A stretch of DNA of 64,000 bases from Lachnospiraceae bacterium (GTDB taxonomy: Bacteria; Bacillota; Clostridia; Lachnospirales; Lachnospiraceae), in NCBI GenBank assembly GCA_017387565.1, contig JAFOEY010000010.1, forward strand, positions 24,815 through 88,814, written 5' to 3'. Shown piece by piece: positions 7,052 through 63,966 of the stretch. Below the pieces are notes generated by a model. It was not told where the DNA came from, did not search any database, and was given only the letters and a program-made list of their open reading frames with translations. The position numbers and the translations under genes are program-made. Within the stretch, counting starts at the first letter, position 1. Each line of letters begins with the position of its first letter.

Positions 7052-7335
7052 AAAAAAAAGCTTCTGCCCCTAAACAGGGACAAAAGCTATAAAAACCTCT
7101 GCGGTACCACCCATATTGATAATATACTATCCACTCATTCTGCATACACACTATATGCACCCTCCTGATAACGGGTAGGGAACCCGTTGACGTCTACTCT
7201 GAAAACATAATCACTTTCATTTCAAGTCACCCTCGCAAGTCCATTCAATCATTTCCTTCATGCTGCATTCCACCAGCCGCAGCTCTCTGTAATGTGTTCC
7301 GTGATTTACTTCTCTCGCTCATCGGTTTATTACTT
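7052..7335 (-). promoter_or_regulatory. T-box leader (tryptophan specifier) with intrinsic terminator
   Basis: The minus strand carries the conserved T-box GGGTGGTACCGC at about 7100-7112, a Stem I distal segment of the AGAGAGCTG...GGTGG type near 7265-7290, and a specifier-like loop containing TGG (Trp) at 7241-7243. After the T-box comes a hairpin (about 7059-7088) followed by eight T residues, the competing terminator. Uncharged tRNA-Trp should stabilise the antiterminator and allow trpE transcription. The specifier assignment is by eye but agrees with the downstream operon. Confidence 0.93.
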
Positions 7336-21280: not shown

Positions 21281-22531
21281 ATGTATCAATGCAAATTGTC
21301 AATCAACTTAATCGGTTCTCTGAACATGCTAAAGGATGTGATTTCAAAGACAGAACCTTTAAGTAACTTTTCACATGAAATCATTTGTTCAGACATACCA
21401 CAAAATTTTGTACTGGCGGTTTCCGATATCATCTTTTTTCATATGAAAGAAGTTCCTAGTGCAGAAACCTTTGAATTGCTAAAACAAAATGCAAAAAAGA
21501 ATTCCAAAATCATTTTTTGTACCAACAGTTCCTTAAAAGAATATATTGTACAAACCGATTTATCTTTTATCCACGATATCTGGCTGATGCCACAGTCGGA
21601 TACAGAATTATCATTCCGTTTTCAAAAGCTTCAGAAAGAGATAAAAACAGAAAAAGACTACTGGCTGACAAAAAACTATTTAGATACCACCATCAACAGC
21701 GTTCCGCACTTGATTTGGTACAAGAATAAAGTCGGTGCTCATTTAAAGGTAAATGAAAGCTTTTGCAAAACAGTCAATAAAACCATGGAGCAAATCGAAA
21801 GACGCGGGCACTACTATATTTGGGACATCGCACCGGACGAATATGCCAAAGGTGAATTTATCTGTATGGAATCGGAATTTGAAGTCATGCAGAAACAAAA
21901 GACCTGTGTTTTTGATGAGACAGTAAAAGTCGGTGACGAATACAGGAAGTTTAAAACTTACAAATCACCGCTTTTTGATGTCGATGGAACAGTTATGGGT
22001 ACGGTTGGTATTGCCAACGACATCACGCAGGAACTGCGTTACAAAGAAGAAATCTCCCAACGTGCCAATACCGATTTCTTAACCGGCTTATATAACAGAC
22101 GTTACGTATACGAATATGTAGACAATAAACCGGAGCTAACTCCCATTACCATTTTTTATCTGGATCTGGATAATTTTAAAACCATCAATGATACCTACGG
22201 TCACAAAGAAGGCGATCATGCACTCCTTTTAACCAAGGATATTTTGTATAAGCATGCAAGCGGATCGCTCATCGCACGTATCGGCGGTGATGAATTTCTA
22301 ATTATTGAGACCAAAGAATATTCTGATAAAGATTTGGAAGAAAAGCGCAAGCGACTGGGAGAACAAATCACAAAAGCCTATCGTGAGTTTCCGTATTTCG
22401 ACAAATTGTCCGTCAGTGTCGGATGTGCACAGGCACCTAAAGTCACCGGAATATTAGATTCTCTGATTTTACAGGCAGATGCCATGATGTATCAGGATAA
22501 AAAGAGCAAAAAAGCTATCTCTGACAGATAG
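21281..22531 (+). CDS. PAS-GGDEF diguanylate cyclase
   Basis: Makes c-di-GMP from two GTP. 416 residues: an N-terminal segment of about 125 residues that looks like a degenerate receiver-type alpha/beta fold, a PAS domain (about 130-255; VPHLIWYKNKVGAHLKVNESF), then GGDEF (about 265-410) with DFLTGLYNRR, FYLDLDNFKTINDTYGH and the intact active site RIGGDEF. No RxxD inhibitory site is seen five residues upstream. No membrane segment. The start ATG has AAGAGGAATATT upstream. It converges on the EAL gene downstream, suggesting paired control of c-di-GMP. Confidence 0.92.
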   Translation: MYQCKLSINLIGSLNMLKDVISKTEPLSNFSHEIICSDIPQNFVLAVSDIIFFHMKEVPSAETFELLKQNAKKNSKIIFCTNSSLKEYIVQTDLSFIHDIWLMPQSDTELSFRFQKLQKEIKTEKDYWLTKNYLDTTINSVPHLIWYKNKVGAHLKVNESFCKTVNKTMEQIERRGHYYIWDIAPDEYAKGEFICMESEFEVMQKQKTCVFDETVKVGDEYRKFKTYKSPLFDVDGTVMGTVGIANDITQELRYKEEISQRANTDFLTGLYNRRYVYEYVDNKPELTPITIFYLDLDNFKTINDTYGHKEGDHALLLTKDILYKHASGSLIARIGGDEFLIIETKEYSDKDLEEKRKRLGEQITKAYREFPYFDKLSVSVGCAQAPKVTGILDSLILQADAMMYQDKKSKKAISDR

Positions 22532-24489: not shown

Positions 24490-24653
24490 GATTTCCACCA
24501 TGAGAACTGCAAAAATCTTATTAGCTCTTCCTCTTACGAAAGAATAAGGATATAAAAAGAACTACCTGTATGATGATTGCTGTTATATCAAAATATAGTA
24601 TTTTCATCTTATTTCCCCTTCATCTGATGTATATCAGATGATTTTGCCCCCTT

Positions 24654-24710
24654 GATACCAACGGATTGCTACGCACTTTGTGCTCTCACAATCCTAAAAC
24701 ATTCAAAATC
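24654..24710. repeat. dispersed intergenic palindromic repeat, copy 2
   Basis: GATACCAACGGATTGC...CAATCCTAAAACATTC. It differs from copy 1 at only a handful of positions across 57 bases and has the same innermost GCAC TTT GTGC hairpin. Outer GATTTTG/CAAAATC arms extend the potential fold to about 70 bases. Confidence 0.75.
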
Positions 24711-24793
24711 AGCCCTAATCGGACTACTTTCTCATCTTTTGCCTCTGATATCATATTAACATTTTTATAAAATAAAATCATTATTTTTTACGA

Positions 24794-28980: not shown

Positions 28981-29030
28981 AAAAAAACAGAGGTACACAC
29001 AGATACTTTTGTATCTGTCCATGCCTCTGT
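28981..29030 (-). terminator. riboswitch-controlled terminator before fhs
   Basis: A long stem ACAGAGG...CCTCTGT enclosing ACAGATAC/GTATCTGT, followed by seven T residues on the minus strand. The 5' side of the stem shares the ACAGAGG bases at the end of the second aptamer, so ligand binding and termination can exclude each other. Confidence 0.85.
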
Positions 29031-29176
29031 CACTAACCTGAAAGATTCTCCTATAACCGGATTGCTTCTTCGGCGCCTTACGGCTCTCCAGAGTTCCGTC
29101 CAAAAACGGTCCTTTTGCCTGAGAGTTTCTGCATCCCCTTCGGCTCTGTCTAAAAACAGTCTCTCCCGATTTCATC
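29020..29176 (-). promoter_or_regulatory. tandem glycine riboswitch
   Basis: On the minus strand the first aptamer shows GGGAGAGAC, GCCGAAGGGG, AAACTCTCAGGCAAAAGGAC and AACTCTGGAGAG; the second shows GCGCCGAAGAAGCAA, AATCTTTCAGGTTAGTGACAGAG. This is the two-aptamer gcvT-type glycine riboswitch with its short linker. It controls fhs-folD-glyA rather than the glycine cleavage genes. With the overlapping terminator the simplest reading is a transcriptional ON switch by glycine. Confidence 0.92.
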
Positions 29177-29189
29177 ATACGGAGCTTTT

Positions 29190-61293: not shown

Positions 61294-61953
61294 CTATTTT
61301 ACTTGATAAGGCTTATCATCCAGCGGCTTCTTGCAACCATTCCTCTTCGCAATATAGTGAAATAATGCTTTCTGCATCCACTTACCAATACGCTTATGTT
61401 GTCGAATCTCTTTTTCCGAAAAATACTCCGGGGCAGCAAATTCATTTACTTCTTCCTTGTCAAAAGTTTCTTTCTGTGCAAAAGATCTTCCCATCTTTTC
61501 ATAATGTGCTACCAGCTTCTCTGCCATGTCCTCCGGCATCCAAGAAGGGCCAAAATTATCCCCTTTAATCAGCGTTCCATTATATTCACAGTTAAAATAT
61601 GACGGTAATATTTCTAAATATGCCTCTCCGCACCGAAGCTGGCTGGCTTCAGCAAAGCCTCCCTGTAGTATAAAAGACATTTTCGTGCCGTCCTCCTTTT
61701 TCGGTTGCAAAGTTTCTAAAAATTCCAACATAATTCCCGGCACACTTTCTACATACAAAGGAAGCGCAAATAAAATATTGCTATTTTTCTCATATGCTTC
61801 TTTAGCACCTGTCCACTGCTTTTTATCCGACAAATGCCAAACTTCTGTTGTATTTCCGCTCTCCTCGAATCCACGGACAAAAGTGCGGATAATTCGCGCT
61901 GTATTGCTCTTAGCCTCCACACGAGGACTTGCGTTAATTATTACTAAATGCAT
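61294..61953 (-). CDS. NAD(P)H-dependent flavin reductase family protein
   Basis: 219 residues, flavodoxin-like fold. HLVIINASPRVEAKSNTARI is the FMN-phosphate loop; NILFALPLYVESVPGIMLEFLETL is the second flavin loop and helix; FILQGGFAEASQ follows. The basic C-terminal 50 residues (RIGKWMQKALFHYIAKRNG) are an extension. No Cys cluster. It overlaps the upstream reductase gene by 10 bases and uses GGGGG within it, so the two are co-translated; they might form a heterodimer or sequential reductases. Confidence 0.82.
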   Translation of the reverse strand: MHLVIINASPRVEAKSNTARIIRTFVRGFEESGNTTEVWHLSDKKQWTGAKEAYEKNSNILFALPLYVESVPGIMLEFLETLQPKKEDGTKMSFILQGGFAEASQLRCGEAYLEILPSYFNCEYNGTLIKGDNFGPSWMPEDMAEKLVAHYEKMGRSFAQKETFDKEEVNEFAAPEYFSEKEIRQHKRIGKWMQKALFHYIAKRNGCKKPLDDKPYQVK

Positions 61954-62453
61954 GAAAGAATCCCCCTTCCTTCTTCTAACGGATATACACCAAGAGAGGT
62001 ACTTTCAAAATTAAGTGTCGTTCTCTCCATCCATTTTTCAAGATATGTATGTTCTGCATTCCCCGTATAAACAATTCCCATCTGCGGACGAATATCATAA
62101 CGCGGTACATGTCGCATCTGACCATCTACAAACTGTAAATACATTGTTGCAATCGGCAAAATTCTATCCAACAAATTTTTCGTCTGATAAGATACAAATC
62201 CAAATTTTATATCTGTAATGAAAACAATCTTCTCATGTTGTAAAATTTTTTTAAGAATAATCTCATAGTCATCCTTAATTGTACAGATTCCCGGTGTCTT
62301 CAACCAACAATAATTACAACCAATGCAATGCGATATTGTCATTCCCTTTGTACAAACCACCTCACTGCCCTCAGCCTGTGCGCATATCTGATTTTGCAAT
62401 TCCAAAACTTCATCATTATCCTCAGATAATGTATTTAACACAAGTACACTCAT
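61944..62453 (-). CDS. flavodoxin-fold NAD(P)H-dependent oxidoreductase
   Basis: 169 residues. The N-terminus VLVLNTLSEDNDEVLELQNQI has the fold but a degenerate phosphate loop. SHCIGCNYCWLKTPGICTIKDD is the CxxCxxC motif of iron-sulfur flavoproteins/NADPH-dependent FMN reductases (Isf-like). FVSYQTKNLLDRILP is the second flavin loop. The C-terminal MERTTLNFES...GVY is short. ATG preceded by GGGAGAAGAGAAT. First gene of the reductase pair. Confidence 0.82.
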   Translation of the reverse strand: MSVLVLNTLSEDNDEVLELQNQICAQAEGSEVVCTKGMTISHCIGCNYCWLKTPGICTIKDDYEIILKKILQHEKIVFITDIKFGFVSYQTKNLLDRILPIATMYLQFVDGQMRHVPRYDIRPQMGIVYTGNAEHTYLEKWMERTTLNFESTSLGVYPLEEGRGILSCI

Positions 62454-62545
62454 ATTCTCTTCTCCCTTTTCTACTCATTTAAATTAAACTTTCCTAAAAT
62501 CAAAAGTCATAATTCCCTCCGCAAAATTCAAATTCGTAATATATA

Positions 62546-62718
62546 GAGCGAAGAGTATACAACTCTTTGCTCTTTATTTTATGATGAAGGTGATTGGCCT
62601 ACGGAATTTCAAATTGGGACACCACGCCCGGAGAAAAATGTGTTAGCCAGCCTTCATTATTCTGCATTCGATTCAGCAAGTTGGGACATCGCTCCCGTTT
62701 AACCAACGAATATGAATG
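62546..62718 (+). ncRNA. candidate IS110 bridge RNA
   Basis: Directly upstream of the IS110 transposase lies non-coding sequence with three consecutive folds: a 5' hairpin GAGCgAAGAGT/ACTCTTtGCTC (62546-62572); stem-loop 1 closed by ATGAAGG/CCTTCAT and GGC/GCC (62584-62657) with a large internal loop; stem-loop 2 closed by CATTC/GAATG and GTTGG/CCAAC (62665-62718). Both loops contain a TTGGGACAYCRCKCCCG motif (62614-62630 and 62681-62697). IS110 bridge RNAs have this order: 5' hairpin, target loop, donor loop. Assignment is by analogy. Confidence 0.6.
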
Positions 62719-62772
62719 GATTCTGAAGAGCTGTATCCAATCAAAATACTATAAGTTAAAGGAGGTACCTTT

Positions 62773-63966
62773 ATGATTGCTGTTGGTATTGATGTTTCCA
62801 AGTCCAAGAGTACCGTTGCCATTCTAAACTCAGATGGCAGCCTACGAATCAAACCTTACGACATGAAACACAATCACCCTGAAATGAATGCACTTGTTAA
62901 CTATCTAAATGAACTGGATGAACCCATCATCATCTTAATGGAGTATACAGGACACTACCATTATCCAGTTCTTAAGAAACTTACTGATGAGCATTTTCCT
63001 GTCTGTTTAGTAAATCCGTATCAGATAAAAAAATATGGTGATACGGAGTTGCGTCGTAGTAAGACTGACAAAAAAGATGCTATCAGAATCGCTACTTATG
63101 CTTTGGAAAAATCTTATCAGTTAGTTCCGTATTCTGTTGATGACCAAAAGTATGTTGACTTAAAAATGTTATCCAGACAATACAGTCAAAGAATGTCTAC
63201 ACTCACCATCAACAAAGTCTATTTGGTAAATCTGCTAGACCAAACCATGCCAGGACTTACATCAATTCTCCCCTTAAGAAGCAGAGACCCTGAAACTAGC
63301 CTCAGCATGATGTTTATCAAGAAATACAAGTCCTTTGATTACATCTGCAAAATGGGGAGAACTCGCTTTCTTGACAGTTACTCTCGCCTGGTCAAGAAAG
63401 CCCGTAATCGTAATGCTTCGCACCTTGGTCTTGCCATCTATGAACTGGCCACCGGCAGTATCACTACCAATGGCGAAAACGAATATACTGTTTTAGCACA
63501 AACCCAATGCATTGACCTAGTTGCAGAAGCTCAACGTTCAGCAGATTGCATCATATCACAAATGCAAACCATTGCAGAAACGCTACCGGAATATAAAATA
63601 CTACGAAATATGCCTGGTGTTGGTGAACGTCTTGGTCCACTTATTCTAGCTGAAATCGGCAATGTCAGACGTTTTCACAGCGGAAAAGCTTTAAACGCTT
63701 ATGCCGGAAACGATGCCCCGCCATATCAGTCTGGAAATTTTGAAAGCCACAATCGACACATATCAAAACGTGGGAATGCGGCTCTCAGAAAATACTGTTT
63801 TGAGGTTATGCAGGCTCTCAAACTGATAAAACCTCAAGATGATCCTGTATATCTTTTTCTGCTAAAAAAAGAACAGGAAGGGAAACATTTCAACGTTGCC
63901 AAAATGGCTGCCGTGAATAAGTTTCTTAGAATTTACTATGCCAGAGTAATGGAACTCGAACAGTAA
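62773..63966 (+). CDS. IS110-family transposase (DEDD/RuvC-like with Transposase_20 domain)
   Basis: 397 residues. The RuvC-like N-terminal domain has AVGIDVSKSKSTVAIL (first Asp), ILMEYTGHYHYPV (Glu) and RRSKTDKKDAIRIA (Asp pair), giving the DEDD set. A coiled-coil segment follows, then the Transposase_20 domain: LRNMPGVGERLGPLILAEIG and the catalytic-Ser region SGNFESHNRHISKRGNAALRK. Complete, with AAAGGAGG 7 bases from the ATG, so probably active. The non-coding RNA-like region precedes it, as in the IS110 (not IS1111) subgroup. Confidence 0.95.
   Translation: MIAVGIDVSKSKSTVAILNSDGSLRIKPYDMKHNHPEMNALVNYLNELDEPIIILMEYTGHYHYPVLKKLTDEHFPVCLVNPYQIKKYGDTELRRSKTDKKDAIRIATYALEKSYQLVPYSVDDQKYVDLKMLSRQYSQRMSTLTINKVYLVNLLDQTMPGLTSILPLRSRDPETSLSMMFIKKYKSFDYICKMGRTRFLDSYSRLVKKARNRNASHLGLAIYELATGSITTNGENEYTVLAQTQCIDLVAEAQRSADCIISQMQTIAETLPEYKILRNMPGVGERLGPLILAEIGNVRRFHSGKALNAYAGNDAPPYQSGNFESHNRHISKRGNAALRKYCFEVMQALKLIKPQDDPVYLFLLKKEQEGKHFNVAKMAAVNKFLRIYYARVMELEQ

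What the first reader, a model, noticed from the sequence alone, without database searches (positions are those of the whole stretch)
62546..62772. Candidate bridge RNA of an intact IS110 element with near-identical motifs in both guide loops
Seen: three successive hairpins in the 230 bases before the transposase, and a 17-base motif TTGGGACAYCRCKCCCG present once in each of the two larger loops. Known: IS110 recombinases use an RNA with a 5' hairpin, a target-binding loop and a donor-binding loop, each carrying two guides that share recognition of a common core. Inference: the repeated motif could reflect guides that recognise related target and donor sequences, so the insertion site and donor junction can be predicted from this sequence.
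Basis: partly seen in the sequence, partly recalled or inferred. Interest (0 to 1): 0.8.

Follow-up and report, generated by a model that had tools for sequence, protein, structure and literature searches.

The report
Bridge RNA of a gut-bacterial IS110
The stretch just before this jumping gene most likely encodes the guide RNA that picks its landing site; the repeated 17-letter motif is mainly structural scaffold at the tips of the RNA's two loops, with the address letters lying beside it.

Summary
In detail: three hairpins precede an IS110 transposase, and the motif lies once in each large loop (62614-62630, 62681-62697). A bridge RNA is strongly supported. Across related elements the left target guide pairs with each element's own left flank (16 elements, 0/20000 shuffles as good) and the right donor guide with its own left end (17 elements, 0/20000). 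Two relatives whose 237-nt leaders differ by one base, inside the left target guide, have flanks differing by the matching base. In one complete genome two copies sit at the edge of a repeat family that has unoccupied copies of the predicted target.

Only its leading TT overlaps the guides; the other 15 bases are a loop-tip stem-loop plus a closing G, the pseudo-symmetric part known from IS621. 'Intact' is unproven: the contig ends 34 bases after the transposase stop, and the right end was not found elsewhere in this assembly.

Less expected: one strand (62650-62658) has two competing cognate partners, one at the base of each loop (21/40320 or better for the second; windows chosen after seeing the sequences). 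It may be a switch. Otherwise this is a new member of a known kind.

The parts
62526..62534 (+). left target flank, positions 1-9 (ATTCAAATT); 62533-62534 TT = presumed core
   Evidence: pairs 8 of 9 with the left target guide; boundary from comparison with relatives
62537..62542 (+). TAATAT, -10-like hexamer of the promoter that would form when the element is a circle
   Evidence: 15 of 15 relatives with a right end give TTGAC plus a -10-like hexamer (4-5 of 6 matches) at spacing 16-18; for the window the right end is inferred from L015
62546..62572 (+). 5' stem-loop of the bridge RNA
   Evidence: fold; 4 of 8 pairs have changes on both sides in relatives
62583..62591 (+). strand A, outer stem of the target-binding loop
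   Evidence: pairs with strand B; 4 of 9 pairs with changes on both sides; cognate to B 1/40320
62607..62615 (+). left target guide (TTTCAAATT)
   Evidence: guide-flank permutation, 16 elements, 0/20000
62614..62630 (+). motif copy 1: last two guide bases, loop-tip GGG/CCC stem-loop and closing G of the target-binding loop
   Evidence: present in 17 of 17 elements; stem invariant, so covariation cannot test it
62631..62639 (+). right target guide (GAGAAAAAT); predicts right flank ATTTTTCTC
   Evidence: weak: 1060/20000 for positions 10-14; base facing position 7 matches the donor in 15 of 15, 14/20000
62650..62658 (+). strand B, shared by two competing helices
62675..62682 (+). left donor guide (AGCAAGTT)
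   Evidence: 7 of 8 pairs with the right end in 14 of 15 elements, 8 of 8 in L044; little variation, so the permutation is weak (1380/20000)
62681..62697 (+). motif copy 2: last two guide bases, loop-tip stem-loop and closing G of the donor-binding loop
   Evidence: TTGGGA..CCCG in 16 of 17 elements
62704..62711 (+). right donor guide (CAACGAAT), complementary to the element's left end ATTCGT
   Evidence: 17 elements, 0/20000; distinct-guide subset of 11, 1/20000
62724..62731 (+). strand C, outer stem of the donor-binding loop, competes with A for B
   Evidence: 6 of 7 outer pairs with changes on both sides; 21/40320 and 5/40320, 8/40320, 119/40320
62760..62765 (+). AGGAGG, likely ribosome-binding site
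   Evidence: read directly
62773..63966 (+). IS110-group recombinase, 397 aa; D7, E57, D99, D102 and S320 align with the DEDD and serine residues of IS621

Best explanation
62546 to about 62731 encodes the bridge RNA of an IS110-group insertion sequence. Inferred cycle: the element excises as a circle; joining right end to left end makes a promoter; the RNA is made and bound by the recombinase. The first large loop pairs with the target (left guide with the bottom strand, right guide with the top strand), the second with the joined ends (donor), and the recombinase exchanges strands at a TT core. The motif shared by both loops is the stem-loop between the two guides of each loop, most likely held in the same way by each recombinase dimer. 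Shown here by sequence: guide-to-flank and guide-to-end matching, covarying helices, constant motif, junction promoter in relatives. Inferred: transcription, protein binding, recombination, and the core.
For: Left target guide positions 1-7 against own left flank: score 171 against a shuffled mean of 117.0, 0/20000, 16 elements (17 minus L017, whose flank is cut off); with one element per distinct guide, 10 with flanks, 0/20000. 14 of 16 have 8 of 9 pairs in register. Right donor guide against own left end: 0/20000, 17 elements. L018 and L019 leaders differ at 1 of 237 bases, in the left target guide (TTTCCGATT, TTCCCGATT), and the flanks differ to match (ATTCCGATT, ATCCCGATT). L033 has changed its left donor guide (AGCTAG) with its right end (AGCTAG) and its right donor guide (ACCAA) with its left end (TTGGT). 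Structure covariation: 15 pairs with changes on both sides, score 0.282 against 0.190 shuffled, 0/500. Junction promoter in 15 of 15. In G427 both copies (L042, L045) lie at the edge of a repeat; 4 of 28 unoccupied repeat loci fetched carry an uninterrupted TTGAAATTT, matching the guide TTTGAAATT. Four G.U positions bordering the guides are constant in 17 of 17, the places where the IS621 paper reports conserved syn G bases (PMC11208158, passages; the match of positions is my inference).
Against: No transcript data. The window's right end, right flank and empty site are not available. The right target guide is weakly supported (1060/20000) and the left donor guide hardly varies (1380/20000). 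L039 and L044 pair only 4 of 9 in register and need a one-base shift. The loop-tip stems never or hardly vary, so covariation cannot test them, and the window's own best fold does not show the second one. Elements are related, so permutation fractions are not exact probabilities.
Confidence: 0.93

Rival explanations
1. The motif itself is guide sequence, because target and donor are related.
For: The motif is in both loops, and its leading TT does overlap both guides.
Against: The motif stays constant (17/17 and 16/17 elements) while target guides and flanks vary; flanks and ends match the bases beside it. Read by eye, the printed flanks and ends do not carry the other 15 motif bases.
Confidence: 0.04
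2. The leader is mainly a regulatory 5' untranslated region of the transposase gene, and its resemblance to a guide RNA is secondary.
For: It lies directly upstream of the gene and is highly folded; a related element's leader is reported to regulate its transposase (ISPpu9, PMC8450116; abstract start in a search listing only).
Against: A regulatory leader would not need to match each copy's flank base by base.
Confidence: 0.04
3. Guide-flank similarity is chance in AT-rich sequence with constant A/T positions.
For: Target sites share constant parts (most read like AAA....ATTT), and right-guide matching is weak (1060/20000).
Against: Shuffling flanks among elements keeps that composition and never reaches the observed left-guide score (0/20000); the single-base L018/L019 pair.
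Confidence: 0.02

Closest known systems
IS621 bridge RNA and recombinase (PMC11208160 passages and section 12; PMC11208158 passages and section 8)
   Same: RNA in the left end; 5' stem-loop, then target loop, then donor loop; each loop is stem, left guide, stem-loop, right guide; left guides pair the bottom strand, right guides the top strand; promoter across the joined ends; DEDD and serine residues; the paper describes the two loops as pseudo-symmetric with shared conserved A and G bases.
   Different: Presumed core TT rather than CT; recombinase only distantly similar (phmmer E = 9.9e-16 for IS621); the two loop-tip stem-loops have nearly the same sequence here, whereas read by eye in an IS621 copy (L090) they do not; the outer stems share one strand here, while the equivalent test in two IS621-type copies was inconclusive (9/500 and 45/500, best duplex at a different place).
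ISEc21 and its seekRNA (PMC11187229, abstract and section 12)
   Same: IS110-group element with an upstream noncoding region whose RNA carries matches to both target strands; natural redirection by a few changed guide bases is reported there for ISMch6.
   Different: Not compared here at sequence level; that paper reports a short 74-nt form and a longer form, and nothing is known of processing here.
IS elements that target REP sequences (PMC1525189, abstract start in a search listing only)
   Same: In G427 the two copies sit at the edge of a repeated noncoding element.
   Different: The G427 repeat is about 260 bp with inverted-repeat character and has not been classified; the window's own site is not known to be in a repeat.

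Membership tests
IS110-group insertion sequence | Transposase with PF01548 and PF02371 domains | tested here: met
   9.6e-39 and 3.2e-18, both above cut-off
IS110-group insertion sequence | DEDD residues and conserved serine | tested here: met
   D7, E57, D99, D102, S320 align with IS621 and ISCro4 chains
IS110-group insertion sequence | Long noncoding left end, not right end (IS110 rather than IS1111) | tested here: met
   Left leader 237-251 bases in 17 elements; relatives' right ends follow the gene more closely; the window's own right end was not seen
IS110-group insertion sequence | Complete element with both ends | tested here: inconclusive
   Contig ends inside the element
[quoted passage not shown]
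[quoted passage not shown]
   0/20000; 14 of 16 in register
[quoted passage not shown]
   14 of 15 have at least 6 of 8 pairs, but several positions are constant and one is the donor base; positions 10-14 give 1060/20000
Bridge RNA | Donor guides pair with the joined ends | tested here: met
   Right donor guide 0/20000; left donor guide 7 of 8 in 14 of 15 and 8 of 8 in L044, but hardly varies (1380/20000)
Bridge RNA | Handshake base of the right target guide covaries with donor position 7 | tested here: met
   15 of 15 pair, 14/20000; against target position 7 no association. Rests on three departures (L039, L041 of one genome; L044, whose register is uncertain). The reciprocal rule fails in L039 and L041, where the donor-guide base C faces target A
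Bridge RNA | Promoter formed across right end and left end in the circle | tested here: met
   15 of 15 relatives, loose criterion (at least 4 of 6 at spacing 16-18), no chance expectation computed
Bridge RNA | RNA is transcribed and bound by the recombinase | not testable with these tools
   Needs RNA sequencing and binding assays

The most novel reading that the evidence does not exclude
The RNA is a two-state switch. One strand (B) closes either the target loop (with A) or the donor loop (with C), so a single RNA molecule would present one fully closed loop at a time and two molecules would be needed per recombination event, in line with the IS621 structural inference that the two loops of a synaptic complex come from two RNAs. 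Both pairings are kept by coordinated changes down to about 36% protein identity.
Probability: 0.2. Interest if true: 0.65.

Novelty: new member of a known kind. Interest (0 to 1): 0.4.

Why it matters
It gives a natural, readable test of RNA-guided insertion in gut Clostridia: sites can be predicted from the leader, and one-base guide changes that go with matching flanks are visible between near-identical leaders. It corrects the reading of a striking repeated motif: it is scaffold, so anyone predicting targets must read the bases beside it. If the shared-strand arrangement is a real switch, it would bear on how one RNA species supplies two loops to a four-subunit complex.

Tried and rejected
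Motif as guide: rejected, see rivals. Third motif copy at 21820: in a coding frame by eye, taken as chance. Right end elsewhere in the assembly: not found. Empty site for the window: a 90%-identical gene copy elsewhere in the genome (L051) aligns with window 61304-62472 only, and the alignment stops about 60 bases before the element, so it gives no empty site. Relatives in viral contigs: 3 stretches matched a pattern, none confirmed. Reading the target as a true palindrome CAAAT-N4-ATTTG: seen by eye in many sites, explained at least in part by constant A-rich guide borders; not tested. Right target guide beyond position 10: weak. Rows dropped before counts: of the relatives fetched, L020-L027 (no leader recovered; one search found no paired motif in those scanned) and L038 and L040 (match starts at residue 24 at a contig edge) gave no leader and were left out of the 17; L017 was left out of left-flank tests (flank cut off); the window and L016 were left out of right-end tests (no right end). 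L006 and L010, more distant, were used only for the three-strand question. Three-strand controls: three window settings were tried (B:C 8, 119 and 21 of 40320; a second set of representatives gave 5; A:C 617 in the wide setting, 11536 and 9593 in the narrow one), windows and representatives were chosen after seeing the sequences, and the wide window includes the donor loop's inner stem. Single-element shuffles are weak for B:C in several (L018 53/200, L019 58/200, L035 63/200, L017 26/200, L086 23/200) and for A:B in L087 (69/200). Papers: searches; none of the listings showed an alternative-fold report for these RNAs, but only open-licence papers are held and I read only the passages and sections named.

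Full report
What is there. The two motif copies and the folded leader are real. The downstream gene encodes an IS110-group recombinase with both Pfam domains and residues D7, E57, D99, D102 and S320 aligned with those of IS621 and ISCro4. The window ends where its contig ends, 34 bases after the stop codon, so the right end is missing; only one copy, plus one distant homologue (28% identity), was found in the genome.

Relatives. Protein searches gave 13 loci in the named genome collection and, at E up to 1e-120, matches in 8 of 397 family-level, 5 of 392 order-level and 2 of 391 class-level genomes, own genome included each time. Seventeen elements had a full leader (window, L015-L019, L033-L037, L039, L041-L045; transposase 53-91% identical to the window's apart from itself). 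Their leaders are 237-251 bases. L042 and L045 come from one genome, as do L039 and L041.

Guides. Reading the bases beside each motif gave the left target guide, right target guide, left donor guide and right donor guide. Left target guides fit their own left flank better than any of 20000 shufflings of flanks (score 171 against a mean of 117.0, 16 elements; 99 against 71.2 with one per distinct guide, 10 elements). In register, 14 of 16 have 8 of 9 pairs; the misfit is at position 1 in 13 and at position 3 in L016; L039 and L044 have 4 of 9 and need a one-base shift. Right donor guides fit their own left end (95 against 71.3, 17 elements, 0/20000; 1/20000 in the distinct-guide subset of 11). 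Left donor guides pair 7 of 8 with the right end in 14 of 15 (misfit always at position 7) and 8 of 8 in L044, but vary too little for a strong shuffle test (1380/20000). Right target guides are weak at positions 10-14 (1060/20000).

A natural one-base experiment. L018 and L019 have leaders that differ at 1 of 237 bases. That base is in the left target guide, and the flanks differ by the corresponding base. L033 has changed its donor guides together with its ends.

Empty sites. In complete genome G427 two copies lie at the edge of a repeat family (66 BLAST pieces, not 66 copies; 30 loci fetched, 2 of them occupied). Four of the 28 unoccupied loci (L063, L069, L076, L079) keep an uninterrupted TTGAAATTT, matching the guide TTTGAAATT; most other readable edges differ at one or more guide-facing bases. 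These are empty sites in repeat copies, not in a sister strain.

What the motif is. In all 17 elements the target loop has TTGGGA..GCCCG, and in 16 of 17 the donor loop has TTGGGA..CCCG (L037 has TTGTGA). Only the leading TT overlaps the guides: positions 8-9 in the target loop, positions 7-8 in the donor loop. The rest is the stem-loop that sits between left and right guide, plus a closing G. Four G.U positions that border the four guides are constant in 17 of 17. The IS621 structure paper describes stem, left guide, stem-loop, right guide in both loops, pseudo-symmetric, with conserved flipped-out A and syn G bases recognised similarly by the recombinase subunits (PMC11208158, passages). I therefore read the motif as shared protein-recognised scaffold. 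The stems themselves do not vary, so their pairing is predicted, not proven by covariation, and the window's single-sequence fold shows a different pairing for the second one.

Structure and promoter. The named structures have 15 and 17 pairs with changes on both sides and covariation scores of 0.282 and 0.309 against shuffled means of 0.190 and 0.188 (0/500 each); sliding the partners by 1-3 columns lowers the score to 0.141 or less. Joining right and left ends gives TTGAC and a -10-like hexamer at spacing 16-18 in 15 of 15 (loose criterion, no chance expectation).

Handshake. The base of the right target guide that faces position 7 pairs with the donor's position 7 in 15 of 15 (14/20000) and shows no association with the target's. 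This agrees with the covariation reported for IS621 relatives (PMC11208158, passages). It rests on three departures. The reciprocal rule does not hold in L039 and L041.

Competing helices. Strand B (62650-62658) pairs with A (62583-62591) at the base of the target loop or with C (62724-62731) at the base of the donor loop. In the 17-element alignment 4 of 9 A:B pairs and 6 of 7 B:C outer pairs have changes on both sides. Across 8 lineage representatives, including distant ones at 36-43% protein identity (L085, L086, L089, L006), cognate A:B is the best of 40320 permutations in every setting; B:C gives 8 (hand-set anchors), 119 (wide windows, which include the inner donor stem) and 21 (narrow fixed offsets), and 5 with a second set of representatives; the A:C control gives 617, 11536 and 9593 in the wide and the two narrow runs. 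I chose windows and representatives after seeing the sequences, and several single elements are weak for B:C, so this is suggestive. In the window's ensemble the highest single-base probabilities are 0.996 for A with B and 0.446 for C with B. In two IS621-type copies the equivalent test is inconclusive (9/500, 45/500, other position). The inner stems of both loops can form in either state, so a switch, if real, acts on the outer stems.

Standing. This is a new member of a known kind, with a corrected reading of the motif and one open structural question.

Noticed in passing
window 62583-62591, 62650-62658, 62724-62731: One strand with two competing partners at the bases of the two loops; both pairings covary in relatives.
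   Followed up: partly
L042 2806-3064, L045 and L055-L084 (genome G427): A repeat family of about 260 bp with inverted-repeat character, edge AAATAGAAATTTGTCTTGG or AAATTGAAATTTGTC, used as insertion site by this IS110 relative; identity of the repeat unknown.
   Followed up: partly
window 61304-62472 and L051: A segment with two flavodoxin-like genes is present a second time in the same genome (169-aa gene 90% identical); the function label is by eye.
   Followed up: partly
window 21820-21836: Third copy of the motif with 2 mismatches inside a GGDEF-type reading frame (by eye); taken as chance.
   Followed up: partly
window 29025-29178 (-), 7073-7331 (-), 24653-24753 (-): Rfam hits: two adjacent glycine riboswitch aptamers, a T-box leader, a Clostridiales-1 RNA.
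   Followed up: no
alignment A1 columns 80-83 with 232-235: The consensus fold adds a long-range pairing TTGG with CCAA downstream of the donor loop, 3 of 4 pairs with changes on both sides somewhere.
   Followed up: no
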